Source: Trichocoleus sp. FACHB-46 (lineage in GTDB: Bacteria; Cyanobacteriota; Cyanobacteriia; FACHB-46). Taken from it: a stretch of DNA of 64,000 bases. The translations under genes were made by a program, and so were the position numbers. Below the pieces are notes generated by a model. That model saw only the letters and a list, made by a program, of their open reading frames with translations. It was not told where the DNA came from and ran no database searches. Every line of letters begins with the position of its first letter. Within the stretch, counting starts at the first letter, position 1. Shown here piece after piece: positions 25,281 through 47,604 of this stretch. The stretch lies in assembly GCF_014695385.1 (NCBI RefSeq), contig NZ_JACJOD010000008.1, positions 124,001 through 188,000 on the forward strand, written 5' to 3'.

Positions 25281-26554
25281 GTTGTAGGGTCTTTCAGCAG
25301 TTGTTGGGCGAGTTCGTAGAGTTCAGCTTCGGGGCGGTTGTCGAGCACTAAGTCCTTCAGTTCTACTAAGCCTTTCGCAATCGCTCCTGCTTGATCTTGA
25401 TAGGCATTATTGGCAGCTAACAAATCGGTATAGGCTTGTAGCTCGATTGCGGTGCGGGGTGGTGGTTCCTCACCATTGCCAATCATTGGTGTTTCGTATT
25501 CGGTGCCGATCGCGTCGTATTTTAGCAAAAAGATCAGCGCTTCACTGAGTTGATGCAGCTCGTCTCGTAAATCGCGCACATTGAGATCCAAGCGGTTGAA
25601 GCCGACCTGACCGTGAATTCGTAGCTCTACAATGGCGTCTGGGGTTTTGCCAGATTTCGCTGCGGATTGGATGTAGGCGATCGCTGCTTGTTCCAGTTCT
25701 GCTTGCGTTTGCTGCTTATTTGCCTCCAGATTGAGACGGATCATCCGGCGCTGATAATAATCTTGCTTTAGCTCAGCTCGGATTCCCGTCCCGTTGATCT
25801 CGACTAGATAGGCACCACGAGGGGTTTGCTGGAGATTTTCAGCGATGCTATTGGCTTCAATCGAGCCAGGGTTAAAAATCCAGCCTTCTAGTTCGTAGTT
25901 CTTGTGGATATGACCTAAAGCTAGATACTCCACTCCTGCTTCCCGCAAAGGATTTACAGCTTCTAGCCTCAGCGCCCCAGTATAACGAGCAATCTGGCCA
26001 TCCATGCCGTGATGAAACATCATGACGGTGTGTGGTGGTCCTGGTGGCAGTTGCTGAATACTATGGGCCAACTTCTCAATCATTTGGGGAGCGGACGCGC
26101 CATACCAACGGGAGCCTAAGACCCGCACCCCACAGGGTAAGTCGATATAGCCACCTGCTTTGGCTTCTGGTGTCCAAGGATCAAAGAGGCTAGCTCCATC
26201 TTCCGTGTCTTCTTTAGGCTCTAGCAGAATCACATATTCCCAGTCAGCCATGTAGCGCAGCCAACTGGTTTTGGTGGCGTAGGGGCGGTTGTCATGGTTG
26301 CCCTCAATTGCCAATACTGGAATACCGGCTTCTCGCAGCATCTCAAAGCAAACCTGGGCCTGGTTCAGCACTGCGGGCAACACTTGCCGATGCTCAAACA
26401 AGTCACCCGCAATTAAGACAAAGTCAACTTGCTCATCAATGGCGTAACGCTCCAGTACATCCCGAAAAGCTAAGAAGAAATCCTTGGTGCGCTGGGGAGT
26501 GTCGTAGCGATCGAGCCCTAAGTGCACATCAGCAACGTGGAGAAAGCGAGGCAT
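25277..26554 (-). CDS. sbcD: SbcD/Mre11-like exonuclease
   Basis: A 425-residue metallophosphoesterase, the nuclease subunit partnering SbcC. All phosphoesterase motifs are present near the N-terminus: DVHLG at about residue 9, GDLFEHR at about 50 and GNHDNR at about 85, then MMFHHGMDG near 185 and LALGHIHKN near 220. The C-terminal 170 residues would carry the capping and SbcC-binding parts. Its TAG overlaps the sbcC TAA (25277-25280) on the opposite strand. Being convergent, the pair must be driven by two separate promoters. Confidence 0.92.
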   Translation of the reverse strand: MPRFLHVADVHLGLDRYDTPQRTKDFFLAFRDVLERYAIDEQVDFVLIAGDLFEHRQVLPAVLNQAQVCFEMLREAGIPVLAIEGNHDNRPYATKTSWLRYMADWEYVILLEPKEDTEDGASLFDPWTPEAKAGGYIDLPCGVRVLGSRWYGASAPQMIEKLAHSIQQLPPGPPHTVMMFHHGMDGQIARYTGALRLEAVNPLREAGVEYLALGHIHKNYELEGWIFNPGSIEANSIAENLQQTPRGAYLVEINGTGIRAELKQDYYQRRMIRLNLEANKQQTQAELEQAAIAYIQSAAKSGKTPDAIVELRIHGQVGFNRLDLNVRDLRDELHQLSEALIFLLKYDAIGTEYETPMIGNGEEPPPRTAIELQAYTDLLAANNAYQDQAGAIAKGLVELKDLVLDNRPEAELYELAQQLLKDPTT

Positions 26555-29164: not shown

Positions 29165-30940
29165 CTAGAAACCTAAGTCCGCTTTAGCAGACTCTGCGGC
29201 TTTGAAGACTGCCGCTGTAGGCATCTCTTCCCAGGGTACATCCCCAATCTCGGCATAAAAGGTTTCGTCGTAAGGGCGAGTGCGAATGACCACAGGCATC
29301 GGCACTGCATGGCCTAGAATTAGAGCTTGCTGTTTTGAGTCTAGCTTAGATAATACGGAACGGAGGCTTTGCGCCCCCGACACTCCGGTAAAGATGGCAT
29401 CAATATCCTTCTCGTCGTTGAGGAGCGCGGTGATGCGGGTGCCAATCTGAGACATGACTTCGTTGTCGATCCCTGAAGGTCGTTGGTCTACTACCAATAA
29501 GGTGACGAAGTATTTCCGCATCTCACGGGCAATCGTGCCGAAGATGGTTTGGCTGACGGTGCTAGGGTCGAGAAAGCGGTGGGCTTCTTCAATTGTGATG
29601 ACGAGTTGCTGGGGACGATCGCTGGGGTTCTTGCTTTGTAAAAACTTCTCGGCTTTTTGCACATAAGCAGCGTGAATCCGACGCGCAATCACATTCGTCG
29701 CCAACATATAAGAGAGCATGTTGGACTGCGAGCCAAACTCAATCACCACGTGCTTGCCCGCATCAATGGAATCGAGAATTTGACCCACGTAGTTGTGAGG
29801 GCAAGTATTACGAATATATTTCAGTTCTTCTAGGCGGTTGAGTTTGCGCTGCAATGCCATGATGGAAGACTTGCTGCCCATCTTGGTTTCGCAAAACTCC
29901 TGAATTTCCATGTTGCTCATAGAGAGCAGGCGAGTAATCCAAGATTTGCCAAACTCATTGCGGAGAATAATGGCGTTTTCTAGGCTGGCTTCAGATAGGT
30001 TGAGTTCTCCGCGTACCAGCATTAGGTCTTCCACATCAATCTGGTCAAAGCTGATAAAGAGATCTTGAGCGTCTCGGACTCCGCGGCGCTTAGTGGATTC
30101 GGTGTCGAGGGTGTAGATCTGCACCTGACCGGGAAAGAGTTGCCTGAGCCCCTTCACTGTGCTGAACTGCTTGCCTTCGCGGACGGCTTCCCAGCCATAC
30201 TCCGAGTGCATATCAAAAATCAGGTTGACTCCCGCTTGTTTGCGGATAATTCCTGACAGCAACAACCGAGTTAGGAAAGACTTCCCGGTCCCTGATTTTC
30301 CAAATACTCCATTACTACGTTCGACGAAGCGATCTAAATCGACGCAGATAGGCACGTCCATATCAATCGGTTGCCCGATCGCAAAGTTGCGACGATGGGG
30401 GTCATCTTCCCAACCAAAAACGGCTCGGAAATCCCGCTCGCTGGCTTCATGCACCTGGCTAAAGTGGCTAGGGATGGTCTTAACGGGCATTAACTCGATC
30501 GTGCTGCTGCTTTGAGGTGTGAGGGAAGCGAGCAGTGGCAAGCTGGCTGTAGAGTCACTTTTATCTTCAGCGGCACGGGCATTTTTGCCACCTTTGGTTT
30601 TCTTGGCCTTACTGTTGGCCGAGTAACTAATAGGCTCTTCTGGTTCGGGTGTAAACATCAACATTGGAGTTAAGTCGATGGTGCCGAACGTGCCCGTTCC
30701 TGCAAGAACTTCTTGGAGAAACGTATTACCTGGATCAGGAGGATTAGCGAAAATCCGGGTGCTGGCGGTTCCTAAGGTTACGTCGGTCAACATGCAGAAG
30801 AACCGCGATCGCGCTCCTTGAACAACCAAGAATTTGCCCACTCGCATGTCTTCTACAGAGACATCTGGGTGTAAGCGAACTTCGAGTCCTTGGCTAAGGG
30901 AGCCTTGAATGACTGAACCTAAGGGTTTATCTAAATCCAT
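29165..30940 (-). CDS. HerA/DUF87-like P-loop ATPase
   Basis: A 591-residue FtsK/HerA-type ATPase. An N-terminal beta-barrel-like part (HAS-barrel position, residues 1-90) is followed by a charged linker (about 110-145). The ATPase core has Walker A GVFGKSGTGKSFLTRLLLSG near residue 215, Walker B LVITIEEAHRFLDP near residue 455 and a later DQRPSGIDNEVMSQIGTRI sensor/arginine region near residue 495. Relatives translocate DNA, often with a NurA nuclease in end resection, but no NurA gene is adjacent here. In cyanobacteria this protein is usually annotated only as ATP-binding protein. Start at ATG 30940. Confidence 0.82.
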   Translation of the reverse strand: MDLDKPLGSVIQGSLSQGLEVRLHPDVSVEDMRVGKFLVVQGARSRFFCMLTDVTLGTASTRIFANPPDPGNTFLQEVLAGTGTFGTIDLTPMLMFTPEPEEPISYSANSKAKKTKGGKNARAAEDKSDSTASLPLLASLTPQSSSTIELMPVKTIPSHFSQVHEASERDFRAVFGWEDDPHRRNFAIGQPIDMDVPICVDLDRFVERSNGVFGKSGTGKSFLTRLLLSGIIRKQAGVNLIFDMHSEYGWEAVREGKQFSTVKGLRQLFPGQVQIYTLDTESTKRRGVRDAQDLFISFDQIDVEDLMLVRGELNLSEASLENAIILRNEFGKSWITRLLSMSNMEIQEFCETKMGSKSSIMALQRKLNRLEELKYIRNTCPHNYVGQILDSIDAGKHVVIEFGSQSNMLSYMLATNVIARRIHAAYVQKAEKFLQSKNPSDRPQQLVITIEEAHRFLDPSTVSQTIFGTIAREMRKYFVTLLVVDQRPSGIDNEVMSQIGTRITALLNDEKDIDAIFTGVSGAQSLRSVLSKLDSKQQALILGHAVPMPVVIRTRPYDETFYAEIGDVPWEEMPTAAVFKAAESAKADLGF

Positions 30941-35766: not shown

Positions 35767-38625
35767 CTATTGAGCTTCACCAATTAAGGTAAAGGCTGCC
35801 CAATCTTTCGGGTCAGGATGTTGTTTCATCGTGGCTAACATGGCTTGGCGAAGAGCTTGGGCTTTATCTGGTTGCTGTTGCAGTGTCTGGTAGAACTGCG
35901 TCATCAGAGTTGCTGTAGGCGCATCAGGTACTTGCCAGAGGGAGACCATGACGCTGGGGGCACCAGCGGCAATAAAGGAGCGCGAGAGACCTACCACACC
36001 ATCTCCAGTAATGCGACCACGCCCAGTATCGCAAGCACTGAGAACCACTAAATCAGTGTTGAGCTTCAGGTCAAGAATTTCGCTAGCTGTCAGGAGGCCG
36101 TTATCTCGACCAGAAGGAGCTAAGGCGATCGCCCCTGGTACTCCCAAACCTTTGAAGTCATCCAATAGCCCGTGGGTAGCTAAATGGACAAGTCGTGTTT
36201 GGGTCATCTGCTGCAAGATAGTAGTTTTAGTCGCTTGGCTACCAGTTAAAGCTTGGGTTTTTAGCAGGGCCGCGATCGCCTTAGCTTCTTGCTCCGCACC
36301 AGGGAGGCTGGGGAGTGGTTGAGGGGTGGCACCGAGAGGTAGGCTGACTTTGGGCATGGTGGGGTTGCCCACTACAAGCAAATTTTTGGCTTTGCCTGAT
36401 TGCTGTTGGCGTTTCTGACGCGTCAGGTCTAGGACTTGAATCGAAGGCGCGGTGAGAACAGTGTGTTGCTCGATCAAGTAGCGACCATTGCTGGCTTGCA
36501 AGGCAGGAAAAGGGACCAAAAACAGGGCTTCTTGGGGTAGAAAGGTAACGTGGGCGTTAGGGTCAGTAGGCAGGAGATCTGCGATCGGCTGAATCAGTAA
36601 TTGGTGGAGTTGTTGCAGTGGTTGGTTGGTTTGGTTGTTTACCTTGGCGATCGCTCTCGCCACCGTCGTCGTGTCTTCTTGGAACGTCAATCCTCGACCC
36701 TTGATGCCGATCGCTTCTCTTGCCTGCGTGACTAAACTTTCCAAGACGGAAGCAGTATCCGCTGCATTAATTCCTGATTGAGGCAAACCTTTTAACTCGA
36801 CTTGGCGAAAACTGATATTTCCTGTGGGCTGAATCACCCAAATGAATAGCTGTGGAGCTTGCGAAGGAGCGATATCCTGCACGATCGCATATTCTACCAG
36901 CGTTGAATTTTGAGTTTTAGCAATCTGCTTGATTTGGGCCAGAGTTGGAGGATTGAGAGCAGGAGCTGTGGTTGAGTTGGTGCTGAGGCGTTGAGCGAGC
37001 AACTCAACAAAGGCACGGGCACGACTGCGTTCAGCAATTTCTAAAGCGGGATTGGTCTGCTTATGGGCAATCAGCGTTTGCTGCAACGTGCCATAGGTTT
37101 TCTGTTGTGTCTCAAAGATAGAGACTTTCTCCGCATCCGTCAGCCCTGGGCGCAAAGATTCCAAAATTGCGATCGCCTGTCGTAGCGTTTTCTCCGCCTC
37201 CGATTGTTGCCCGGAACGATGCAAAATCCGACCAATACTGCTCAGCGTCACCCCCTCATTGACGCGATCGCCCACCTCCCGATGCACCGTGAGCGCTTGC
37301 TGATAGAACTTCAAAGCTTGGGCATTCTGTCCCTGTTGCTCATAGGAGTGGCCCAAGTTGCTCAGCGCCACCCCTTCCCCCGTGCGATCGCCTACCTGCT
37401 TGTAGAGTTGCAACGCCTGCTGGTAAAACTTCAGCGCTTGATCCGTTTGCTTCTGGTTGTCGTAGACCTGCCCCAAATTGTTTTGCGTGGTGGCTTCCCC
37501 AGCGCGATCGCTGAGTTCCTGGTAAATCGCTAACGCTTGTTGATGCAGCTTCAGTGCTTGGTCGTATTTGCCCACCCTGGCATAGACCCGCCCAATATTG
37601 TTCAGTGTCGCGGCTTGACCTACCTTGGTAATCGATTCCTGATTCAAGGCATTGCCAATATCCCGCCGCATCGCCAAGCCCGACTGCTGAAACTCCAACG
37701 GTTGGGAATATTGCCCCACAATCTCGTATAGCAACCCCAACTCAGTAAACGCCGTGGCTGCATCCGGGCGATCGCTAAACTTGTTAAAAATCGCCAGAGC
37801 TTGCTGAGTCGAATCCAGCGCTTCCTTGTACTGCCCAATGCTGAAAAACAGCCCACCCATATTATTGAGAATCGTTGCCTTCGTGCCTTGATAAGCGGGC
37901 AGTGAATCAAAAATGGCTAAGGCTTGGCGATAACTTTCCAGCGCCTTGGCGTACTGCCCCAGATTCACATACACCACGCCCACATTACCCAGCGTCGTGG
38001 CTTCGCCCTCGCGATCGCGCCCCTCCCGCTGAAGTTTGAGCACCTGCTGATACGCTTCCAACGCTTGCGGATATTGCCCCAACCGGAAGTAAACACTAGC
38101 AACCTCATTCAGCCGTAGCTTCTCACTGTTGCGATCGCCCAACTGCCGAATGATCCCTAATGCCTTCTGGTAAAACTCCAGCGCCTTGGTGTATTGTCCT
38201 TGCTCCCCATAAGCCACCCCCATATCAGCCAGCGTTGCCCATTCCCCCTCGCGATCGCCAATCTTCTGCCGCAACTTCAGCGCCTGCTGATAGAACTCCA
38301 ACGCCTTCGGGTACTGCCCCAAACTGTAGTGGTAGACATTGGCAATGTGATTCAGACTTTGCGCCTCCCCCGCCTTAGCCCCCGTCGCCTTAAAAATCGC
38401 GATCGCCTTTTGCAACGTTGCTAACGCCTCTCGCGGCTGCCCCTGGCGAAACTGGTCATACCCTTGCTGATTCAGATAAACCGCCTCAGTAATCTGCGCC
38501 TGCTCTGTCTCCGACTGCGCCAACACCACCGAAGCCCCTAAAGGATTGAAGTGATCCAACGGTGTGCCACCTGCCAGTAATAAAGCAGCAACTACAAAGC
38601 TCAGCGATCGGCGGTGATAGGACAT
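35767..38625 (-). CDS. exported TPR-CHAT (caspase-like) protein 1
   Basis: A 952-residue protein. A signal peptide (residues 1-37, ending ASVVLAQ) is followed by about 12 tetratricopeptide repeats of 40 residues (about 55-500; consensus pieces such as LYEIVGQYSQPLEF and NNLGQVYDNQKQTDQALKFY). A helical connector precedes the C-terminal CHAT domain (about 640-952). CHAT is a caspase/separase-fold peptidase; the His is in HLATHG (about residue 818) and the Cys in LSACDTG (about residue 865), so it looks catalytically intact. The signal places it outside the cytoplasm, unlike CHAT proteases in known defence systems. It is the last of a minus-strand array of paralogues; the C-terminal segment PDPKDWAAFTLIGEA is shared by all. 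Confidence 0.88.
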   Translation of the reverse strand: MSYHRRSLSFVVAALLLAGGTPLDHFNPLGASVVLAQSETEQAQITEAVYLNQQGYDQFRQGQPREALATLQKAIAIFKATGAKAGEAQSLNHIANVYHYSLGQYPKALEFYQQALKLRQKIGDREGEWATLADMGVAYGEQGQYTKALEFYQKALGIIRQLGDRNSEKLRLNEVASVYFRLGQYPQALEAYQQVLKLQREGRDREGEATTLGNVGVVYVNLGQYAKALESYRQALAIFDSLPAYQGTKATILNNMGGLFFSIGQYKEALDSTQQALAIFNKFSDRPDAATAFTELGLLYEIVGQYSQPLEFQQSGLAMRRDIGNALNQESITKVGQAATLNNIGRVYARVGKYDQALKLHQQALAIYQELSDRAGEATTQNNLGQVYDNQKQTDQALKFYQQALQLYKQVGDRTGEGVALSNLGHSYEQQGQNAQALKFYQQALTVHREVGDRVNEGVTLSSIGRILHRSGQQSEAEKTLRQAIAILESLRPGLTDAEKVSIFETQQKTYGTLQQTLIAHKQTNPALEIAERSRARAFVELLAQRLSTNSTTAPALNPPTLAQIKQIAKTQNSTLVEYAIVQDIAPSQAPQLFIWVIQPTGNISFRQVELKGLPQSGINAADTASVLESLVTQAREAIGIKGRGLTFQEDTTTVARAIAKVNNQTNQPLQQLHQLLIQPIADLLPTDPNAHVTFLPQEALFLVPFPALQASNGRYLIEQHTVLTAPSIQVLDLTRQKRQQQSGKAKNLLVVGNPTMPKVSLPLGATPQPLPSLPGAEQEAKAIAALLKTQALTGSQATKTTILQQMTQTRLVHLATHGLLDDFKGLGVPGAIALAPSGRDNGLLTASEILDLKLNTDLVVLSACDTGRGRITGDGVVGLSRSFIAAGAPSVMVSLWQVPDAPTATLMTQFYQTLQQQPDKAQALRQAMLATMKQHPDPKDWAAFTLIGEAQ

Positions 38626-38656
38626 GGTGAGAATTTCAGATAGTGAGTAGAGTCAG

Positions 38657-38700
38657 CCCTCTCCCCCAGCCCCTCTTCCAATACTGAGCGAGGGGAGCAA
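38657..38700. repeat. short C/G-rich repeat-like stretch
   Basis: CCCTCTCCCCCAGCCCCTCTTCC followed by GAGCGAGGGGAGC; resembles the ends of family A palindromic elements but is incomplete. It lies in the 292-base gap between two CHAT genes, next to repeat family B. Confidence 0.35.
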
Positions 38701-38745
38701 GATGAAAGGAAAGCAAGATGAAAACTGGGAGAAACAAGCACTTTT

Positions 38746-38804
38746 GGAGGGGGTCTGGGGGACGCAACCGTCCCTCAGCGGGAGTTTGGGGGAAGCGCCC
38801 CCAA
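38746..38804 (+). repeat. dispersed repeat family B, copy 2
   Basis: A 59-base element matching the reverse complement of 32031-32089 at 49 of 59 positions without gaps. It sits between two CHAT genes, downstream of the FHA-TPR-CHAT gene. Confidence 0.75.
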
Positions 38805-38917
38805 TGGCTCGGTTCTCAAAGCCTAAACCAAGCTAGAAATAACGAAGAACACCCCAAAAAACTTCACCTCGATCCTGCCCTACTCCGTAGAACTTCAACC
38901 CATAAGTAACAAATTTG

Positions 38918-41900
38918 TCACTCCGCCTCACCAATCAAAGTAAACGCCGCCCAATCTCTAGGATCTGGGTGCTGCTTCAACATCGCCAACATTGCCTGCC
39001 GTAGCGCTTGCGCCTTATCCGGTTGCCGTTGCAGATTTTGGTAAAACTCAGTCATCAGAGCTGCCGTTGGGTGATCGGGCACCTGCCACAGCGACACCAC
39101 CACACTTGGGGCACCCGCTGAAATCAGCGATCGCGATAGCCCTACTACCCCATCGCCCGTAATCTTGCCGCGTCCTGTGCCACAAGCACTCAGCACCACC
39201 AACTCAGCATTCAGCTTCAATCCGAGAATGTCATTCGCCGTCAGCAAACCATCATCCTGACCCGAAGGCGCTAAGGCGATCGCACCTGGAATGCCTAGCC
39301 CTCGGAAATCATCCAACAAACCATGAGTTGCTAGGTGAATAATCTGAGCATCACCCATCTTTGCCATCACCGTTGCTTTCGTTGCCGCGCTGCCCGTAAT
39401 CGCCTCTGTGTTGAGGAGCGAGGCAATCATCTTGGCTTCCCGCTCAGCTCCAGGCAAGCTGTAAAGTGGTTGCGATCGCTCACCATTTTCGCTCGGCACG
39501 TTAGGCATCGTGGGGTTGCCCACAATTAGAGACTTCTGGGGCGATCGCGGTAGTGTTGTGGCGGCAATCTGCGTAGGCTGAGACTGCTGCGCTATGCCTT
39601 GGCGTTGCCTTTGTTGGTAGGTGAGTGCCAAAACCTCGATTGCTGGGGCCGTCAGCATCGTATGTTTTTCGATCAGATACTTTCCGGCGGCATCTTGCAA
39701 AGCGGGGAAAGGAGCCAAAAAGAGAGAACCTTGAGGAATGAAGACCACACGAGCAGTTGGGTCGCTTGGCAACAGATCCGCGATCGGCTGAATCAACAGT
39801 TGATGCAGTTGCTTCAGTTGTGACTGTTGCGTCTGGTAACGTTGGAGCCTCTCCAAGGCACTGGCGACAACCTGAGTGGTTTGGTTAAATGCCAGCCCCC
39901 GCCCTTCAATCCCAATCGAGGCTCTGGTACTAGCAACCAAATCATCTAAAGAGGTCTTTTGCTCCTGCCACAGCGGTTTGAGGTCTACTTGGCGGAATGC
40001 TACTTCTCCATTGGGCTGTACCACCCAGATATAGAGCGCTTTGTCCTGAATCTGCCGCTGCCCCTCGACCTGAAAGGCTTCTTGAATAATCGAATACTCA
40101 ACCAAGGTGGCATTCTGAGCGCGGGCAATTTGTTGAATTTGGGCAATGCTGGGAGGTTCTAGATTAGCAGCGCCTGCCAAACTTTTGCTGCCCTGAGTGG
40201 GCAACTGCTTTGCCAACAATTCCACAAAAGCACGGGCTCGACCGCGTTCTGCCACTTCTAGCGCTGCCTGCGCCTTATTCTGGGCAATCAAGACTTCTTG
40301 AAGCGTGCTGTAAGTCGTTGCTTGAGTCTCAAAGATTGAGATCTTCGTCGCATCATCATTTTGATCAAGCTGTGCCCGTAGCGACTCCCAAACTTTGATC
40401 CCTGCAAAAAGCGCTTGCTCTGCTTCAGCCAATTTACCCAAACGTAACCAAGCATCTCCTAAATTATTCAAGGCATGGCCTTCACCAGGGCGGTCCTGCA
40501 ATTGTTGCGCGAGCGCCAAACTTTGCTGTTGATAGTTAGCTGCTTGCTGGTAGTTTTCCAGGCCATAGTAAGCCAGCCCTAAGTTACCCAACGCTCGCCC
40601 TTCGGCTAGGCGATCGTTCAACTCACGCGCGATCGCTAATTGTTGCTCCAGATGCTTAATCGCTTTGGCGTGATCCCCTTTGGTGAAGTAAACCAAACCT
40701 AAATTGCCTAACGACTGCCCAATGCCTCGGCGGTCCTGAGCTTTCTCCGCGATCGCTAAACTTTCCTGTGGATATTCCAGTGCCTTAGCAAGATTGTCTT
40801 GAGCCAGATACGCGATCCCCAAGTTGCGTAGGGTCATGCCTTGCAATTCGGGAACTGGCAGCGTGCGGCTGATGGCTAAACTTTGCTCGTAGTACTGAAT
40901 CGCCTTTGTGTAGTTACCCACAGCACTGTAAGCAGCTCCTAATCCACTTAACGCTTCCGCTTCGCCTGCTCGGTTTTGCAGTTGCTGAGCGAGCGCCAAA
41001 CTCTGCTGGTAGCGCTGAATTGACTGGGCGTAGTTGCCTACGACAAAATGGATGCTGCCTAAGTTATGCAGGGTTTGTCGTTGCTGCTGCGGTTGGTTTT
41101 GCTGCTGAGCTAAAGCGAGTTGCTGCTGGTAGCACTGAATCACTCGCCCTTGGTCAGTAATGACTCGGTAAGTCGTTCCCTGATTTTCTACAATCTGTCC
41201 AACTCGCAAACAATCCTGGGTACTCGTTGCGATCGCAATTTGTTGCCCTTGAACAGTAGTTCCCAGAGTGGGATTGGAGCGAGGGCGATCGTTACTCAGA
41301 GCAATTTCTTGCCGCCGAATCGTGCCTGGTTTGGGTTGCGGTGCAGCTCCAAGCGTTGCGCTGGGAACTTCCGGGGGAGGTGAAGGTGGTACTCCTGTAG
41401 TGGCTCCAATGCCTGTTTCAGGCTGAGGCGAGGGCGGAATTCCACTTGATGGTTCAGGTAAAGGATCGGGAGAAACCCCTAATGCTGGTGTACCTATACC
41501 TTCAGGTGAGCCTGGTTCAGGATTAATCGGAATATCAGGGGGTACTGGCCCAGCTTGTTGAGTGGGTTTCTCGGAGGGGATAAGTGGAAGGTCCCCTGGA
41601 ACTTCTGGAATAGCTGGTAGGCTAGCTCCTGGGTCTTCTGGAATGGGTGGCAGGTCAACTTCTGGGATGGATGGGGGGAATGTAATGCCCATCTCTTTAT
41701 CAATCGGAAAGGGAATGTCTATATCTGGAAGAGGGTTAGGAGAAATTTTGCCACCAGTTCCAGGGTTGCTGACTCTATCACCAGGGTCAATGAGAACTTC
41801 GATGTTGCCTCTAATGTAGAAGGTGCTGCCAGTGGGGCTAGTAACGAGATAGGTATTGCCATCAGGCTGAATGCTTAAAGGATTGCCGATACTGTCGTGC

Positions 41901-42919
41901 ACACCTTTGTCAGGTAGCGGGAGAGGTGTATTGCCCAGCGTGACTTTGCCAGCAGCCACAAGCGTGGCACTCCGAGCCGTAGCATTTTGCACCACTACAT
42001 CTCCTGGCAAAACGGTGAGGCCAGAGCCAGATAAAACTAGCTGCCCGTCTCGGTTGGTGGTGATATTCGTAGCATTTTTGCCGAGACCGCCTGTAAGGAG
42101 ATCGGGGAGATCCACAATCGGGAAGTCCCAGGGGTTGGGTTGATAGGTGTCAGGAGCGATCGCCTGAATATCTAGAGTCAGCAAACTTTCGGCTTGGCTC
42201 AGCCGTACCAAACTGTTACCTGGAACCGCCGCGACGGTGATGTGTCCTTCGGGAGCGGTGAGTTGACCTGTGCTAATCACAGTGCCACCGAGCAACGTTA
42301 AATTCTGTCCAGCGGCAACTTCTAGATTCCCGGTATTGATGATCCCGGCGGGTTGGCTCATGCTGAAGGCGAATAAATCTGGTGTGCCGACTAAGCCTTC
42401 ATAGCTGTTAGGGCCAGAAGCGTTCAGCCACTCTTTACCAAAGCCAATTCCGTTGGCAGTGGTAGCGGTGAAAGAGCCAGGAATGTTGAGACTGGCATTG
42501 GCACCAAAGACGATCCCCGCAGGATTGATGAGAAATAAATTGGGACTGCCACCTGTAACTTGAATTAAGCCATCGATCGCCGACAAGTTGCCGCCTACCA
42601 CCCGTGCCAAAATGTTTTGCGTGGCGGGATCAGCGAGGAAATTGGCCGTGTAGCCTGTTTCGAGAATGAACTGAGTAAAGCTGTGAAACAGGTTCGCTCC
42701 GTCTTGCGATCGCTGGCCCCCTGTAATATCAAAGCGGCTACCGTCCGGGGTGACGAGCGTCCCTGTATCATCTGGGGCAGGAAGGATTGGTAAGGCTTTG
42801 CCGTCTGGAATCCCACCAGCATGGCTAGATTGGGGCGGAAAAACTGCGGCCAAAACTAATGCGACTAGCAACAAGCTCACCCCGAGGTGGGGCGATCGTA
42901 AACGATTTTTCAAGGTCAT
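38918..42919 (-). CDS. two-partner-secretion-type FHA-TPR-CHAT fusion protein
   Basis: A 1333-residue exported fusion. A signal peptide (residues 1-35) precedes a filamentous-haemagglutinin N-terminal secretion domain (about 50-270), with SIDGLIQV-like LSAIDGLIQVTGG, LFLINPAGIVFGANASLN (the NP-x-GI motif) and TPDLFAFS. A proline-rich linker (about 390-560) follows, then about six TPRs (about 640-870) and a C-terminal CHAT peptidase domain (about 1000-1333), with HLATHG (His about 1199) and LSACGTG (Cys about 1246). The first part is what two-partner systems use to cross the outer membrane through a TpsB (FhaC/ShlB) pore. No TpsB gene is in the window. The domain order suggests a secreted or surface-held caspase-like peptidase. 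Confidence 0.88.
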   Translation of the reverse strand: MTLKNRLRSPHLGVSLLLVALVLAAVFPPQSSHAGGIPDGKALPILPAPDDTGTLVTPDGSRFDITGGQRSQDGANLFHSFTQFILETGYTANFLADPATQNILARVVGGNLSAIDGLIQVTGGSPNLFLINPAGIVFGANASLNIPGSFTATTANGIGFGKEWLNASGPNSYEGLVGTPDLFAFSMSQPAGIINTGNLEVAAGQNLTLLGGTVISTGQLTAPEGHITVAAVPGNSLVRLSQAESLLTLDIQAIAPDTYQPNPWDFPIVDLPDLLTGGLGKNATNITTNRDGQLVLSGSGLTVLPGDVVVQNATARSATLVAAGKVTLGNTPLPLPDKGVHDSIGNPLSIQPDGNTYLVTSPTGSTFYIRGNIEVLIDPGDRVSNPGTGGKISPNPLPDIDIPFPIDKEMGITFPPSIPEVDLPPIPEDPGASLPAIPEVPGDLPLIPSEKPTQQAGPVPPDIPINPEPGSPEGIGTPALGVSPDPLPEPSSGIPPSPQPETGIGATTGVPPSPPPEVPSATLGAAPQPKPGTIRRQEIALSNDRPRSNPTLGTTVQGQQIAIATSTQDCLRVGQIVENQGTTYRVITDQGRVIQCYQQQLALAQQQNQPQQQRQTLHNLGSIHFVVGNYAQSIQRYQQSLALAQQLQNRAGEAEALSGLGAAYSAVGNYTKAIQYYEQSLAISRTLPVPELQGMTLRNLGIAYLAQDNLAKALEYPQESLAIAEKAQDRRGIGQSLGNLGLVYFTKGDHAKAIKHLEQQLAIARELNDRLAEGRALGNLGLAYYGLENYQQAANYQQQSLALAQQLQDRPGEGHALNNLGDAWLRLGKLAEAEQALFAGIKVWESLRAQLDQNDDATKISIFETQATTYSTLQEVLIAQNKAQAALEVAERGRARAFVELLAKQLPTQGSKSLAGAANLEPPSIAQIQQIARAQNATLVEYSIIQEAFQVEGQRQIQDKALYIWVVQPNGEVAFRQVDLKPLWQEQKTSLDDLVASTRASIGIEGRGLAFNQTTQVVASALERLQRYQTQQSQLKQLHQLLIQPIADLLPSDPTARVVFIPQGSLFLAPFPALQDAAGKYLIEKHTMLTAPAIEVLALTYQQRQRQGIAQQSQPTQIAATTLPRSPQKSLIVGNPTMPNVPSENGERSQPLYSLPGAEREAKMIASLLNTEAITGSAATKATVMAKMGDAQIIHLATHGLLDDFRGLGIPGAIALAPSGQDDGLLTANDILGLKLNAELVVLSACGTGRGKITGDGVVGLSRSLISAGAPSVVVSLWQVPDHPTAALMTEFYQNLQRQPDKAQALRQAMLAMLKQHPDPRDWAAFTLIGEAE

Positions 42920-43160
42920 GGGCTGAGGAAAGGCGGCTGATGAATGGGATCGCTGAACACGTATCTAACTGCATTCGCTCAACCCAGGCTGCAGGTTGTG
43001 GGCAAAACGCAGTCATTCAAGAGCAGTCGCTAGAACGCTGTACAAAGCAGAACCGAAGAACTGGTAAAACCTTAACTGATCTACTACACCCAGATGGAAG
43101 CGGAAGATACCCCAAATATAGACAGCCTAATTGGGGAATCAAAACCCTACTCCTAAAGTA
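42920..43160. other. leader of the FHA-TPR-CHAT gene
   Basis: No gene. It should carry that gene's own promoter, because the intergenic distance and the CHAT remnant separate it from the WD40 gene. No convincing boxes or ribosome site were seen before the ATG at 42919. Confidence 0.35.
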
Positions 43161-43217
43161 TTAGGGTCTGTTTCGGGCAAATTCCGCTTCGCCTATTAGG
43201 GTGAACGCTGCTAGATC
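43161..43217 (-). pseudogene. remnant of a fourth CHAT gene C-terminus
   Basis: Read on the minus strand from 43217, the codons give DLAAFTLIGEAEFARNRP and then TAA at 43161. The first twelve residues match the conserved end of the three intact CHAT proteins (DWAAFTLIGEA) at all but the Trp, which is Leu. The codon before them is TGA, and nothing further upstream matches. It lies between the WD40 gene and the FHA-TPR-CHAT gene, exactly where a deleted array member would leave its 3' end. Confidence 0.6.
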
Positions 43218-43260
43218 TCAGCCCTCTTCATCGCATGTCCAATCGCTTTTCAAGTCGTAA

Positions 43261-44331
43261 TTATGAAATGGTCAGAGCCTGTCGTTGCTCCTTAGAGGTG
43301 GGGGCGCTGAGAGTGACGTCACGGCCTGTTCGGAGATCCCAAAGTTTGATGATGTCGCCCCAGCCGCCACTGACTAATGCTTGACCATTGGAGCTGAGGG
43401 CGATCGCCTCGATACTACTGGATTGACGAGGCAGAGTTTGGGTGAGTTGTCCGGTTGTTAACTGCCACAACTTAATCGTGTTATCGCTGCTGCCACTGAT
43501 CAGCGTTTGGCCATTGCGGCTCAGCGTCAAAGCGCTAATGGCGGCTTGATGACCCATTAAAGTTTGTCTTACTTGACCTGCTGATAAATCCCAGACTTTG
43601 ATGGTGCGATCGCCATTGCCACTGATTAAGGTTTGACCATCGGCGCTAATGGCTAAGGCATTAATGCCAAAAGCGTTATCTGAAAAAGTCCGCAGCACTT
43701 CGCCGTTACTCAGTTGCCACAGCTTGATTACATTCCAACTGCTGCTGGCTAAAGTTTGTCCGTCAGCACTAATCGCTAAGGCGTAAATTGAGTCCTGGTG
43801 TCCAGTCAAAGTTCGCTCCAACTTGAACTTCTGCCCGACAGCCGCTAAGCGCCAGACCCGAATCGTTTTGTCGCCACCGCCGCTGAACAAAGCTTGACCA
43901 TTGGGACTGAAGGCGATCGCTTCTACCCAATCGGTATGCCCCGTGAGAGTTTGCAACAGTTGTCCAGTGGGTACGCTCCAAAGTTTGATGGTTTTGTCGT
44001 GACTGGTACTAGCGAGAATTTGACCATTGGGACTGAAGGCGATCGCTAAAATCGGTAACGGATGCCCTGCTAAGGTGCGGATTTCTGCTTGAGTTTGCGA
44101 GTTCCACAACTTGATTTGCTTGTCATGGCTTACCCCTGCCACTACTTTGCCATCGGAACTAATGGCTACGGCTGCATGACCTGAGAGAATCCGGGCGATC
44201 GCTTTGGGCAGTTGACTTTGAGGTTGGGCAATTGCAGATGGGGCAGCAAGTATGGGGTAGGCGAAGCAACAAGTGGCAGCGATCGCACTAAGACTCATGC
44301 TAGAAAGGCGAATCATGAGTGGGTTCAGCAT
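43261..44331 (-). CDS. exported seven-bladed WD40 protein
   Basis: A 356-residue protein with a signal peptide (LSAIAATCCFAYPILAAPSAIAQ, cleavage near residue 35) and seven WD40 repeats ending in KLWNSQT, KLWSVPT, RVWRLAA, KLWQLSN, KVWDLSA, KLWQLTT and KLWDLRT, enough for one closed beta-propeller. WD40 propellers are binding platforms. The gene starts 3 bases after the stop codon of the TPR-CHAT gene at 44335, so the two are co-transcribed and probably co-translated. Both are exported, which suggests they meet outside the cytoplasm, perhaps as sensor and peptidase; that pairing is inference. No enzyme domain is attached, unlike many cyanobacterial WD40 proteins. Confidence 0.88.
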   Translation of the reverse strand: MLNPLMIRLSSMSLSAIAATCCFAYPILAAPSAIAQPQSQLPKAIARILSGHAAVAISSDGKVVAGVSHDKQIKLWNSQTQAEIRTLAGHPLPILAIAFSPNGQILASTSHDKTIKLWSVPTGQLLQTLTGHTDWVEAIAFSPNGQALFSGGGDKTIRVWRLAAVGQKFKLERTLTGHQDSIYALAISADGQTLASSSWNVIKLWQLSNGEVLRTFSDNAFGINALAISADGQTLISGNGDRTIKVWDLSAGQVRQTLMGHQAAISALTLSRNGQTLISGSSDNTIKLWQLTTGQLTQTLPRQSSSIEAIALSSNGQALVSGGWGDIIKLWDLRTGRDVTLSAPTSKEQRQALTIS

Positions 44332-44334
44332 GAT

Positions 44335-47300
44335 TTATTCAGCCTCACCCATCAGCGTAAAAGCGGCCCAATCCAGCGGGTCAGGGTAGCTGGCTTTGGT
44401 TACTAGCATGGCTTGCCGTAACGCTTGGGCTTTATCAGGTTGGCGTTGCAGTTGCCGATAAAACTCGGTCATCAAGGCAGCAGTGGGTTCGTCAGGCACC
44501 TTCCACAGCGACACGATCACACTCGGTACGCCAGCAGAAATTAAGGAGCGGGACAACCCCACCACGCCATCGCCTGTAATTCTTCCCTGCCCAGTGTCGC
44601 AGGCACTTAAAACTACCAGTTCTGCATTGAGCTGCAAATTGAGAATTTCGCTGGCAGTGAGGAGGCCGTCATCTTGGCCAGAAGGCGCTAAGGCGATCGC
44701 TCCCGGTACACCTAAGCCTTTGAAATCATCTAACAAGCCGTGTGTCGCTAAGTGAACAATCTGAGCTTGCGGAAGTTGCTGCAAAATTTTGGCTTTGGTG
44801 GCTTGATCTCCGATGAGAGCTTGGGTGCGGAGAAGCGTGGCGATCGCTTTGGCTTCCTTTTCGGCTCCTGGTAGGCTGGCCAGTTGCTCGGCAGGTTCGC
44901 CCAACTTGGGACGAATGCTGGGCATAGTGGGATTGCCGACAATTAAGGATGAAGGAGAAGGGAGAAAGGATGAAAGTGGATCTGCTTTCTTATCCCTTGC
45001 CTCCTGTAATCGTTGGCGTTGTTGGTGGGTGAGGTCTAGGACTTGAATTGAGGGAGCGATCAAAACAGTATGTTTTTCGATCAGGTATTTGCCGTCGGCA
45101 TCCTGTAGGGCGACAAAAGGGACGAGAAAGAGAAACTGCTGGGGAATGAAGGTGACGTGAGCATTAGGGTCTTTGGGCAGCAAATCGGCGATCGGGTCGA
45201 TCAGCAGTTGATGCAGTTGTTGCAAGCGCTTGTTTTCAGCTTCAGCAGCATTGGCATCGGCAGTAGCACGGGCGATCGCCTCGGCATCTTCCTGAAACAC
45301 TAATCCTCTGACCCCGATGGAACTGCGGCTGCGAGTGACTAACTCCTTGAGGGGTTGGGTGGTTGGAGTGGGAGTCACTCCCTTTTGCCACAGCGGTTTC
45401 AAGTCCACTCGGCGAAAGTCCACTTTGCCGTTGGGTTGAATCACCCAGATGAATAATTCTGACTCGCGCAGAGGTTCACCGTTGACATTCCGCTCATCGT
45501 CGTCGATGACGGAGTACTCGACCAGCGTAGTGTTGTGCTGCTTGGCGATCGCTCGAGTTTGAGCCAAATTAGGCGGCTGGATTTTGGCGACGGCGTCAGC
45601 TTGAGTGGGCAAGCGTTCGGCTAAAAGTTCCACAAACGCTCTGGCCCGACCGCGCTCAGCCGCTTCCAGAGCAGCTTCTGGTTTGTTTTGGGCAACTAAG
45701 GCCTTTTGTAAGAGGCGATAGGTGCTGGTTTGCTCTTCAAAAAGGGAAATTTTATTGCGGTCATCATCTCCTAGACTGGCTCGCAAAGATTCCCATGCTT
45801 GAGCGCTGGCGAGCAGACTGGTTTCTGCGGCGGTTAATTGCTTGGCAGCCAATTGAGCGCGACCGAGGTTGCCGAGGGCATAGCCTGCAACGCGTTGATT
45901 GCCAATTTTCTGCGCTAGAGCGGCGGCTTTAGCTTGGTAGCTAGCGGCTTGGGCGTAATCCTGGCGTGTGTAATGAGTCCGTCCCAGATTGATCAGCGTG
46001 GTCGCTTCTCCGGCGGGGTCCTTAGTCTTTTGGGCGATCGCTAGCGCTTGGTTGTAATAAGTTAAGGCGAGTTGGGGTTGTTTCAGGTCGTCATAGATCA
46101 AGCCAATGTTGTTGAGAACCGTGGATTCTCCTTCGGCGTCTTGGACTTGGCGGAGTAGCTTCAGGGATCGCTGGTAATAATCTAGGGCTGGCTCGTAATC
46201 GCGGCGGTCGTAATACACGCTGCCAATATTGGCTAAAGCATAAGCTTCGCGTCCGGGGTCATCGGCTTCTTTGAGGACCGCTAGCGCTTGCTGAAAAATT
46301 TCTAAGGCTTGGTCTAATTGGCCCACATAAGAATAGACGGTCCCCAGATTGGCCAAGGTGGTAGCGCGGTCAAAGCGATCGCTATCAGCTTTCAGGCTGG
46401 CGAGTGCTTGATTGAAGGCATCAAAGGCGGTTTGGTATTGGCCCAGTTTGGCGTACACCAAGCCCATGTTGTTGAGCGTGCGATTTTGGCGGGTGTGGTC
46501 TCCGGTGGATTTCGAGATCGCCAACGATTGGCGGTGATAGTTCAGCGCTTGGGCATAGTCGCCGAGCTTGCTGGATATACTGCCCATGTTGTTGAGCACC
46601 GTGCCCTCTCCAGCCCGGTTTTTGATCTCTTTCAAGAGAGGGAGTGCTTGGTTGAAGGCAGCTAAGGCGAGTTCAAGTTGGCCTGTGGAATTGTAGACCT
46701 GACCCATGCCCACAAGAATAGTCGCTTGGCTGTAGCGATCGCCTAATTGTTGCGCCAATGGCAATGCTTGTTTGTAAGCCTCTAGCGCGGGTTGCTTTTG
46801 GCCCAAGCTGTCGTGCGCGGCTCCCAAAGCTAGCAAAGCCAAGATTTCCTGCTGTCGTTCACCGTTCTTTTTGGCACTGGTTCTCGCTTGCTCAAACTTC
46901 GCGATCGCTTGCTGCACCGAAGCTCTAGAGCCTTGGCTCAGTAATGCCTGCCCTTCCTTCAGGGCTTGCATGGTGGGGTCTAGGGTATTGTTTGATGAGG
47001 GAAGTTGGGCCGCAATCACGGCTTGCTGTTGCTGATAAGTCTTGACCTGGTCAAAATCTCCTAACTCTTGCGAAGTTTTGATCAAGCTTTCCAATGCTTG
47101 CGCTTGCTTGGGCACATCTTTAAGCTTTTGGGCCAAGGCAAGGGCAGGTTCCTGGTAGCTCAGCGCTTGCTTGTTCTCGCCAACGGACGCATAAATGGTG
47201 CCGAGAGTATTCAGCATTTGCCATTCTTTCTCGGCATCGCCCCACTGTCGTGCTAGTTTCAGCCCTTGTTCGTAGTAGCTGGCAGCAGGGGGAATTTCTT

Positions 47301-47604
47301 GCTGGCTGTAGTGCAGCAAGCCCAGGCAGTAGAGAATTAGAAACTCACCTTCGCGATCGCCTAGACTCCGATAAATCTGGAGCGCCCGTTGCCAAGATGT
47401 TTCGGCAGCGGCAAACTCTCTGGCTTCAAGTTGAGCAAAGCCTTGCTTTTGCAGTTGATCCGCTTCGATTTTCTGAGCCGAATTTGGGGTTGCAGGTTTT
47501 TGTGTGGCGGTAGGTTGAGCGATCGCCTCAGGAATCGGCAAAATCATCCCAGCAGGCAAGACTAAAGCAAATAACAGCGCAGCAAAGAGTTTGGCAGAGA
47601 GCAT
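44335..47604 (-). CDS. exported TPR-CHAT (caspase-like) protein 2
   Basis: A 1089-residue protein: signal peptide (residues 1-30, LFAALLFALVLPAGMILPIPEAIAQ), about 13 TPRs in two blocks (about 48-200 and 240-620), a connector, and a C-terminal CHAT domain (about 760-1089) with HLATHG (His about 955) and LSACDTG (Cys about 1002). It closely resembles the protein at 35767 over the CHAT domain. It is first in the array (minus strand) and 3 bases upstream of the WD40 gene. A glycosyltransferase gene precedes it by about 130 bases. Substrate and trigger unknown. Confidence 0.88.
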   Translation of the reverse strand: MLSAKLFAALLFALVLPAGMILPIPEAIAQPTATQKPATPNSAQKIEADQLQKQGFAQLEAREFAAAETSWQRALQIYRSLGDREGEFLILYCLGLLHYSQQEIPPAASYYEQGLKLARQWGDAEKEWQMLNTLGTIYASVGENKQALSYQEPALALAQKLKDVPKQAQALESLIKTSQELGDFDQVKTYQQQQAVIAAQLPSSNNTLDPTMQALKEGQALLSQGSRASVQQAIAKFEQARTSAKKNGERQQEILALLALGAAHDSLGQKQPALEAYKQALPLAQQLGDRYSQATILVGMGQVYNSTGQLELALAAFNQALPLLKEIKNRAGEGTVLNNMGSISSKLGDYAQALNYHRQSLAISKSTGDHTRQNRTLNNMGLVYAKLGQYQTAFDAFNQALASLKADSDRFDRATTLANLGTVYSYVGQLDQALEIFQQALAVLKEADDPGREAYALANIGSVYYDRRDYEPALDYYQRSLKLLRQVQDAEGESTVLNNIGLIYDDLKQPQLALTYYNQALAIAQKTKDPAGEATTLINLGRTHYTRQDYAQAASYQAKAAALAQKIGNQRVAGYALGNLGRAQLAAKQLTAAETSLLASAQAWESLRASLGDDDRNKISLFEEQTSTYRLLQKALVAQNKPEAALEAAERGRARAFVELLAERLPTQADAVAKIQPPNLAQTRAIAKQHNTTLVEYSVIDDDERNVNGEPLRESELFIWVIQPNGKVDFRRVDLKPLWQKGVTPTPTTQPLKELVTRSRSSIGVRGLVFQEDAEAIARATADANAAEAENKRLQQLHQLLIDPIADLLPKDPNAHVTFIPQQFLFLVPFVALQDADGKYLIEKHTVLIAPSIQVLDLTHQQRQRLQEARDKKADPLSSFLPSPSSLIVGNPTMPSIRPKLGEPAEQLASLPGAEKEAKAIATLLRTQALIGDQATKAKILQQLPQAQIVHLATHGLLDDFKGLGVPGAIALAPSGQDDGLLTASEILNLQLNAELVVLSACDTGQGRITGDGVVGLSRSLISAGVPSVIVSLWKVPDEPTAALMTEFYRQLQRQPDKAQALRQAMLVTKASYPDPLDWAAFTLMGEAE

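What the first reader, a model, noticed from the sequence alone, without database searches (positions are those of the whole stretch)
35767..47604. Array of three exported TPR-CHAT peptidase-like proteins with a WD40 partner
Three large paralogues (952, 1333 and 1089 residues) lie in a row on the minus strand, each with a signal sequence, TPRs and a C-terminal CHAT domain with intact His (HLATHG) and Cys (LSAC) positions. CHAT domains are best known as cytoplasmic caspase-like proteases, for example in HetF-type and TPR-CHAT defence-associated proteins. Here all copies are predicted to leave the cytoplasm. A WD40 protein, also exported, is interleaved. This could be a periplasmic or surface proteolytic system of undescribed function.
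Basis: partly seen in the sequence, partly recalled or inferred. Interest (0 to 1): 0.7.

Follow-up and report, generated by a model that had tools for sequence, protein, structure and literature searches.

The report
Secreted caspase-like proteases of cyanobacteria
A cyanobacterium carries a conserved row of exported caspase-like protease genes, one of them fused to the tag that sends proteins out through a dedicated outer-membrane pore, which points to an undescribed protease system working on the cell surface.

Summary
Three TPR-CHAT proteins (952, 1333, 1089 aa) and a WD40 protein lie at the stated coordinates, with His and Cys intact. It is therefore a TPS-TPR-CHAT fusion predicted to leave the cell altogether.

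The link is general. In 80 chosen cyanobacterial TPS regions, 14 have CHAT fused to TPS and 28 more have a CHAT gene nearby (4.5 of 80 expected by chance). In the two same-genus genomes every TPS protein is a CHAT fusion (3 of 3, 2 of 2), and each has one strong TpsB pore match, so that pore has no other recognisable client. All 17 fusions use one TPS subtype, although their CHAT domains fall in separate clades. Related loci add DUF928 and CHASE2 sensor genes.

The array is conserved in the genus under purifying selection. The CHAT model matches Csx29, separase and gingipain.

Best reading: surface-delivered caspase-like endopeptidases that cut envelope or exported proteins. Export and an intact dyad are well supported. 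Protease activity and substrate are inferred. It is a new variant of known kinds; I found no description in the papers searched.

The parts
44335..47604 (-). exported TPR-CHAT protein, 1089 aa (CHAT at 44344-45231; Cys1002 at codon 44599-44601)
   Evidence: CHAT E 7.6e-73; signal peptide read by eye (missed by the strict script) and kept in two same-genus orthologues
43261..44331 (-). exported WD40 beta-propeller, 356 aa, 3 bp after the 1089-aa gene
   Evidence: signal peptide; the pair is kept in both same-genus genomes and, at about 51% identity, in a genome of another family (L199)
38918..42919 (-). TPS-TPR-CHAT fusion, 1333 aa
   Evidence: orthologues with 86% and 83% identity; dN/dS 0.10 and 0.115
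42185..42754 (-). TPS secretion domain (residues 56-245), with NLFLINPAGI motif from residue 127
   Evidence: PF05860 E 1.3e-40, TIGR01901 E 1.5e-21, motif position; weak sequence match to the solved TPS exoprotein EtpA 8cpk, E 2.8e-4
41120..42166 (-). proline-rich, fast-evolving linker (residues 252-600)
   Evidence: dN/dS 0.26 and 0.37 against 0.06 for the TPS and CHAT parts
40370..41119 (-). TPR repeats (about residues 601-850)
38927..39820 (-). CHAT domain of the fusion; His1199 codon 39323-39325, Cys1246 codon 39182-39184
   Evidence: E 4.1e-71; invariant columns
35767..38625 (-). exported TPR-CHAT protein, 952 aa (CHAT at 35776-36624; its only Cys is Cys865, codon 36031-36033)
   Evidence: E 5.5e-75; structure model of its C-terminal 473 residues, pLDDT 88, pTM 0.90

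Best explanation
The array encodes exported caspase-like endopeptidases. Two (952, 1089 aa) are sent across the inner membrane by Sec. The third (1333 aa) carries a TPS passport, so a TpsB (ShlB/FhaC-type) pore encoded elsewhere in the genome takes it through the outer membrane and it is shown on, or shed from, the surface. The TPR superhelix acts as the recognition arm. By analogy with Csx29, binding of a partner to it aligns the His-Cys dyad of the CHAT domain, which makes a limited cut in a surface or exported protein. The likeliest targets are TPS exoproteins themselves: the CHAT protein's own stalk when fused, the neighbouring TPS protein when separate. The cut would mature, release or signal through them. 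Shown by computation: gene content, TPS domain, intact dyad, caspase-type fold, conservation, association with TPS, TpsB, DUF928 and CHASE2. Inferred: actual secretion, protease activity, activation by TPR binding, and the substrate.
For: TPS domain on the 1333-aa protein. In the same-genus genomes G078 and G079 all TPS-domain proteins (3 of 3, 2 of 2) are TPS-CHAT fusions and each genome has one ShlB match, so the pore has no other recognisable TPS client. G050 likewise has one TPS protein, fused, and one ShlB. In G078 one fusion lies in the order CHASE2, DUF928, TPS-CHAT, ShlB, DUF928. Strong ShlB matches (E <= 1e-15) occur in all 28 genomes with TPS and in 0 of 7 without. 14 of 80 TPS regions fused and 28 of 80 with CHAT in the region, 25 of these on the same strand; 4.5 of 80 expected to hold a CHAT by chance. 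All 17 fusions fall in one TPS clade (28 rows, SH-aLRT 100) while their CHAT domains fall in separate clades: the same passport was joined to CHAT more than once. His and Cys both kept in 17 of 17 fused, 36 of 37 TPS/DUF928-adjacent and 97 of 104 other CHAT proteins, though the fused set has only 0.18 Cys per 100 residues against 0.99 for background ORFs. dN/dS 0.06-0.12 for the CHAT genes. CHAT model Z 28.8 to Csx29, 26.2 to separase, 19.1 to the secreted gingipain RgpB.
Against: No secretion or peptidase data. The window locus has no TpsB, DUF928 or CHASE2 gene among the ORFs that I scanned: 10 in and next to the array and 10 others in the window; the remaining window ORFs were not scanned. 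38 of 80 TPS regions showed no CHAT (9 of them with a TPS ORF cut by a region or contig end), and 5 of the 7 genomes without TPS still have CHAT genes, so neither needs the other. The strict signal-peptide script fires on only 8 of 17 fusions (TPS-only control 51 of 94, background 125 of 948). Low Cys content is not specific: a CHAT protein in the same genome without evident signal peptide has 1 Cys in 1036 residues. TPS and CHAT distances do not correlate among fusions (r 0.03).
Confidence: 0.5

Rival explanations
1. The CHAT domain is an effector: the protein is put on the surface or released to cut proteins of neighbours, predators or phages (contact competition, kin discrimination or defence), as caspase-like domains are proposed to do in polymorphic toxins.
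For: CHAT is the C-terminal-most domain of the TPS fusions, the place of the effector in TPS toxins. Zhang et al. 2012 (PMC3482391, passages read) list caspase-like domains both as releasing peptidases and as toxin domains of exported proteins. Tandem arrays and domain shuffling.
Against: No immunity-like gene was recognised beside the array among the ORFs scanned. dN/dS is low, without diversifying selection, in TPS and CHAT parts. PADLOC gives only generic TPR hits.
Confidence: 0.2
2. The CHAT domains work as binding or sensing modules in the envelope, not as proteases, like the extracytoplasmic CHAT part of the anti-sigma factor DdvA (role recalled), possibly feeding the CHASE2 sensors.
For: DdvA (8rot, titled transmembrane anti-sigma factor) is the only PDB sequence match to the CHAT profile, E 7.2e-9, and has Z 23.5-23.9. 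26 of 40 DUF928 regions hold a CHASE2 gene and 19 of 40 a CHAT gene.
Against: His and Cys are among the invariant columns and kept in 17 of 17 fusions; a pure binding module need not keep a free Cys in an otherwise Cys-poor exported protein.
Confidence: 0.15
3. Only the two Sec-dependent proteins work, in the periplasm; the TPS part of the third is a relic without a working pore.
For: No TpsB within the scanned part of the window; the TPS linker evolves fast.
Against: The genome has two ShlB genes and four TPS proteins, all fused to or near CHAT. The TPS domain is under as strong selection as the CHAT domain (0.06 each).
Confidence: 0.1
4. The proteins are cytoplasmic and the signal sequences false.
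For: CHAT proteins with known roles are mostly cytoplasmic (Csx29, separase; established knowledge). The heuristic signal-peptide score is only about 50% sensitive.
Against: TPS domain; N-termini conserved in orthologues; signal rate equal to that of TPS-only proteins and about four times background.
Confidence: 0.05

Closest known systems
Csx29 (TPR-CHAT of Craspase, type III-E CRISPR)
   Same: TPR followed by C-terminal CHAT; best structural match, Z 28.8, rmsd 3.2 over 368 residues; His-Cys dyad 47 residues apart here, 43 in Csx29 (H615/C658, PMC10028731 passages)
   Different: Csx29 is cytoplasmic and bound to Cas7-11; here exported, one copy with a TPS passport, no Cas7-11 beside it
DdvA transmembrane anti-sigma factor (8rot, 8rw5)
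   Same: CHAT domain by sequence (E 7.2e-9) and fold (Z 23.5-23.9); an extracytoplasmic place for its CHAT is my recall
   Different: membrane-anchored regulator; no signal peptide plus TPS secretion domain
Gingipains RgpB and Kgp
   Same: secreted caspase-fold cysteine proteases; Z 19.1 and 17.2
   Different: secreted by the type IX system (recalled), no TPR, no TPS domain
TPS exoproteins (FHA, EtpA) with TpsB/FhaC pores
   Same: TPS domain with NPXG motif; TpsB genes in the genome
   Different: known exoproteins are mostly beta-helical adhesins, haemolysins or CdiA toxins (recalled); here the passenger is TPR-CHAT
HetF (Anabaena) and CHAT all2170
   Same: cyanobacterial CHAT plus TPR; HetF is tied to the envelope through a TM and binds FtsI (PMC8406250 passages)
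   Different: HetF has CHAT at the N-terminal part (aa 1-555) and a TM; no signal peptide or TPS domain reported in those passages
WD40, CHASE2, DUF928 cluster of Nostoc (PMC5587647)
   Same: a five-gene cluster with two WD40 proteins, CHASE2 and DUF928 (passage), partners that recur here
   Different: that passage names neither CHAT nor TPS

Membership tests
CHAT (PF12770) | profile match above the curated cut-off | tested here: met
   252.9, 240.2 and 245.9 bits, cut-off 24
CHAT (PF12770) | caspase-type fold with His and Cys dyad | tested here: met
   model pLDDT 88, matches to Csx29, separase and caspase-7, invariant His and Cys
CHAT (PF12770) | endopeptidase activity | not testable with these tools
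   needs an assay
TPS exoprotein (TpsA, type Vb secretion), 1333-aa protein | N-terminal TPS domain and NPXG-type motif | tested here: met
   PF05860 E 1.3e-40; TIGR01901 E 1.5e-21; NLFLINPAGI at residue 127
TPS exoprotein (TpsA, type Vb secretion), 1333-aa protein | Sec signal peptide | tested here: met
   script positive, conserved in two orthologues; no trained predictor
TPS exoprotein (TpsA, type Vb secretion), 1333-aa protein | cognate TpsB | tested here: inconclusive
   two ShlB genes elsewhere in the genome, one in each same-genus genome whose only TPS clients are CHAT fusions; none seen beside the window array
TPS exoprotein (TpsA, type Vb secretion), 1333-aa protein | TpsB-dependent secretion | not testable with these tools
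   needs a tpsB deletion
Craspase TPR-CHAT (Csx29) | encoded beside Cas7-11 | tested here: not met
   the genes flanking the array are inositol phosphatase, glycosyltransferase and PMT_2 families; no Cas family among the 20 window ORFs scanned
Craspase TPR-CHAT (Csx29) | TPR-CHAT fold | tested here: met
   Z 28.8, 368 aligned
HetF | CHAT in the N-terminal part, followed by TM and TPR (PMC8406250) | tested here: not met
   CHAT is C-terminal in all three
known defence systems (PADLOC) | match to a defence protein other than generic TPR or HEAT models | tested here: inconclusive
   generic TPR model best in all three CHAT proteins; weak extra hits PDC-S39 E 4.7e-7 and C3a156 E 1.5e-6 to 5.5e-6 lie in the TPR part

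The most novel reading that the evidence does not exclude
Cyanobacteria have a widespread surface-protease system: CHASE2 sensors and the exported beta-sandwich protein DUF928 act with CHAT caspase-like proteases that leave the cell on a dedicated TPS passport subtype through TpsB, and these proteases process TPS exoproteins to control adhesion, phage reception or cell-cell contact. In some lineages, including this genus, the only recognisable job of the type Vb pore is to export caspase-like proteins.
Probability: 0.4. Interest if true: 0.8.

Novelty: new variant of a known kind. Interest (0 to 1): 0.62.

Why it matters
CHAT proteases are studied as cytoplasmic or RNA-activated enzymes (Csx29), divisome partners (HetF) or cohesin cutters (separase). 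A family that is exported, and in repeated independent fusions delivered by two-partner secretion, would place caspase-like proteolysis on the bacterial surface and give cyanobacterial TPS systems a function other than plain adhesion. It makes testable why cyanobacteria carry so many CHAT genes (up to 38 in one of the 33 genomes searched). It also offers candidates for surface remodelling: phage-resistant Nostoc 7120 substrains are reported with mutations in an FHA-N-terminal-domain protein (RD5) and, with a second mutation, in a CHAT protein (RD2) (PMC10811720, passages).

Tried and rejected
CRISPR/Craspase origin: rejected by neighbourhood. HetF: rejected by domain order. Known defence system: only generic or weak repeat-region hits. 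Promoter and terminator scan of the array: fewer promoter-like sites than in shuffles (2 against 7.9), so no operon claim beyond gene spacing. Co-evolution of TPS and CHAT by distance correlation: r 0.68 for 23 adjacent pairs (0 of 2000 permutations as high) but confounded by species relationship; r 0.03 for 17 fusions. I read the latter as domain shuffling, but it is also what no coupling would give.

DUF928 model: beta-sandwich plus helices, mean pLDDT 75.9. Best match MtxA C-terminal domain, Z 10.0; the next rows are Z 7.5 and below, many of them carbohydrate-active enzymes, i.e. a common fold. No function concluded; no PDB sequence match.

My first signal-peptide heuristic fired on 162 of 529 background ORFs and was replaced by a stricter one (125 of 948).

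Literature: full-text searches (PMC open-licence papers only) showed no paper describing TPS-CHAT fusions or a CHAT-TPS-DUF928-CHASE2 system. Listings and passages were read, no whole papers. The Anabaena exoproteome paper PMC4390845 and the EXCRETE paper PMC11424642 hold none of the terms I searched in them: CHAT, DUF928, TPR and hemagglutinin spellings, plus Sll1891 in the latter. Supplements were not available.

Rows dropped before counts: ORFs open at the 5' end and the overlapping own-genome fragments L001-L021 and L030-L037; in the CHAT tree, domains under 220 aa, near-identical copies, and rows labelled 'other' beyond 55. The 80 TPS regions were chosen by me from the rows that one search listed (65 alternate rows plus 15 for under-represented genomes; weaker matches were not listed), so they are not a random sample; overlapping neighbours share regions. 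The 40 DUF928 regions are every third listed row among rows 1-120, own genome left out; L235 and L242 overlap.

The HMMs used in scripts were built by me from Pfam-verified members and relatives, not Pfam's own.
Full report
WHAT IS THERE. Pfam finds CHAT and TPRs in all three large proteins and a WD40 propeller in the fourth. It is thus signal peptide, TPS, proline-rich linker, TPR, CHAT. The WD40 start lies 3 bp after the 1089-aa stop; the other two gaps are 341 and 292 bp. The neighbours are an inositol-phosphatase-family gene on one side and glycosyltransferase and PMT_2 genes on the other.

CONSERVATION. One same-genus genome (G078, locus L197) has all four genes in the same order; the other (G079, L198) has three of four, lacking the 952-aa gene at that place. 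Identities to the window are 85, 78, 86 and 90% (L197) and 84, 82 and 83% (L198). dN/dS is 0.06-0.12 for the CHAT genes and 0.15-0.17 for WD40; within the fusion it is 0.06 for TPS, 0.05 for TPR, 0.06 for CHAT, and 0.26 and 0.37 for the linker. A CHAT-WD40 pair at about 51% identity to the window proteins occurs in G054, of another family (L199).

IS IT A PROTEASE? His and Cys are among the invariant columns of a 65-row alignment. They are both kept in 17 of 17 TPS-CHAT fusions, 36 of 37 CHAT proteins within 1.5 kb of TPS or DUF928 on the same strand, and 97 of 104 other CHAT proteins collected. The exported proteins are poor in Cys (0.18 per 100 residues in fusions, 0.99 in background ORFs), and the 952-aa protein has a single Cys, the nucleophile. 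A cytoplasmic-looking CHAT protein of the same genome is also Cys-poor (1 in 1036), so Cys content alone does not show export. The C-terminal 473 residues of the 952-aa protein give a confident model (pLDDT 88, pTM 0.90). VIA-align: Csx29 Z 28.8 (rmsd 3.2, 368 aligned), human separase 26.2, DdvA 23.5-23.9, gingipain RgpB 19.1, caspase-7 12.6; Foldseek agrees. The His-Cys spacing is 47 residues here and 43 in Csx29 (H615/C658, PMC10028731 passages). Fold and residues do not prove activity.

IS IT EXPORTED? The N-termini look like cyanobacterial signal peptides and are conserved. A strict script is positive for 82 of 158 CHAT proteins (52 of 104, 22 of 37 and 8 of 17), against 51 of 94 TPS-only proteins (positive control) and 125 of 948 background ORFs. 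It misses the window's 1089-aa protein.

THE TPS LINK. The own genome has four TPS proteins: two fused to CHAT (window and C28) and two within about 5 kb of a CHAT gene (C76, C58). TPS matches above cut-off occur in 26 of 78 genomes of the phylum. In 80 regions around TPS genes from 25 other genomes, 14 show TPS and CHAT in one ORF and 28 a CHAT gene in the region, 25 of them on the same strand and many overlapping or within 100 bp; 38 show none, 9 of these with a cut TPS ORF. Chance expectation from CHAT counts per genome is 4.5 of 80.

THE PORE. In the two same-genus genomes all TPS proteins are CHAT fusions: 3 of 3 in G078 and 2 of 2 in G079. Each has one ShlB match. In G078 the ShlB gene ends 28 bp from a TPS-CHAT gene (convergent), with DUF928 on both sides of the pair and CHASE2 upstream (L249). 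G050 has one TPS protein, fused (L170), and one ShlB. Over 35 genomes, strong ShlB matches (E <= 1e-15) are found in 28 of 28 with TPS and 0 of 7 without. This is the best genomic evidence that a type Vb pore exports CHAT proteins.

INDEPENDENT FUSIONS, ONE PASSPORT. In a tree of 105 CHAT domains the 17 fusions need four changes (at least two forced by starred branches; shuffled mean 15.9). Fourteen sit in one clade, while the window's fusion sits among stand-alone TPR-CHAT proteins beside that of Oscillatoria princeps (L105; support 82). In a tree of 108 TPS domains all 17 lie in one 28-row clade (SH-aLRT 100) together with 6 CHAT-adjacent, 1 near, 2 cut and 2 rows without CHAT. The window's TPS domain is 66% identical to that of the C28 fusion of the same genome, whereas their CHAT parts align at only 35% over 172 residues. 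So a particular TPS subtype has been combined with different CHAT types. Both trees are quick searches (LG+G4, no bootstrap).

THE WIDER SET. C76 of the own genome carries TPS, CHAT, DUF928, CHASE2-histidine kinase and ShlB genes together; C3 carries CHASE2-kinase, DUF928 and CHAT. Of 40 DUF928 regions, 26 hold CHASE2, 19 CHAT, 8 TPS, 7 ShlB, and 34 at least one of these. Named loci such as L082 (FACHB-63), L096 (Pseudanabaena sp. UWO311) and L111 (Pseudanabaena sp. 'Roaring Creek') show TPS and CHAT adjacent with DUF928, the first two with ShlB and CHASE2 too. The window array itself has none of DUF928, CHASE2 or ShlB in the ORFs scanned and may depend on the copies elsewhere.

MECHANISM. I favour a surface-delivered, TPR-guided caspase-like endopeptidase that makes limited cuts in exported proteins, most likely TPS exoproteins (confidence 0.5 for the whole chain; about 0.85 that at least the 1333-aa protein leaves the cytoplasm by Sec and TPS). 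Rivals: effector against other cells, non-proteolytic sensor, periplasm only, false signals. Precedent for caspase-like domains as processing or toxin domains of exported proteins is given by PMC3482391 (passages).

NOVELTY. CHAT, TPR-CHAT, TPS and TpsB are known. I found no paper in ten full-text searches (PMC open-licence papers only) that describes their union. PMC5587647 reports WD40, CHASE2 and DUF928 genes clustered in Nostoc (passage) without CHAT or TPS. I rate it a new variant of a known kind.

Noticed in passing
L135:9534-13925 (G002): One 1463-aa ORF holds a TPS domain and a POTRA_2/ShlB pore, i.e. secreted partner and transporter in one chain, directly followed by a CHAT gene.
   Followed up: partly
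L024:10943-14259 (own contig C58): The TPS gene upstream of a CHAT gene is split over two overlapping ORFs (577 and 569 aa), so it may be broken or hold an assembly error.
   Followed up: no
L028:3624-7143 (own contig C36): DUF928 gene followed by a TPR-CHAT gene read in two overlapping ORFs at a contig end: a probable broken copy.
   Followed up: no
L140 (G008:C38) and L117 (G024:C86): Tandem arrays of five and six TPS exoprotein genes; in both genomes a CHAT gene lies just beyond the array.
   Followed up: no
window 12786-14645, 22524-26554, 29165-30940: Eco57I-like methylase, SMC/SbcC-like ATPase beside a calcineurin-like phosphoesterase (SbcCD-like pair), and a HerA-like ATPase in the same window.
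   Followed up: no
PMC9895726 (passage): A peptide SLSLLGGTVV assigned to a Nostoc 'CHAT domain-containing protein' in a water extract resembles the TPS-domain stretch NLTLLGGTVI of the window's 1333-aa protein. A weak hint that a TPS-CHAT protein has been detected; the peptide evidence is thin.
   Followed up: partly
L249 against own contig C6:741324-744981: The same-genus DUF928, TPS-CHAT, ShlB, DUF928 locus lacks the TPS-CHAT gene in the window's genome and in G079: loss or gain within the genus.
   Followed up: partly
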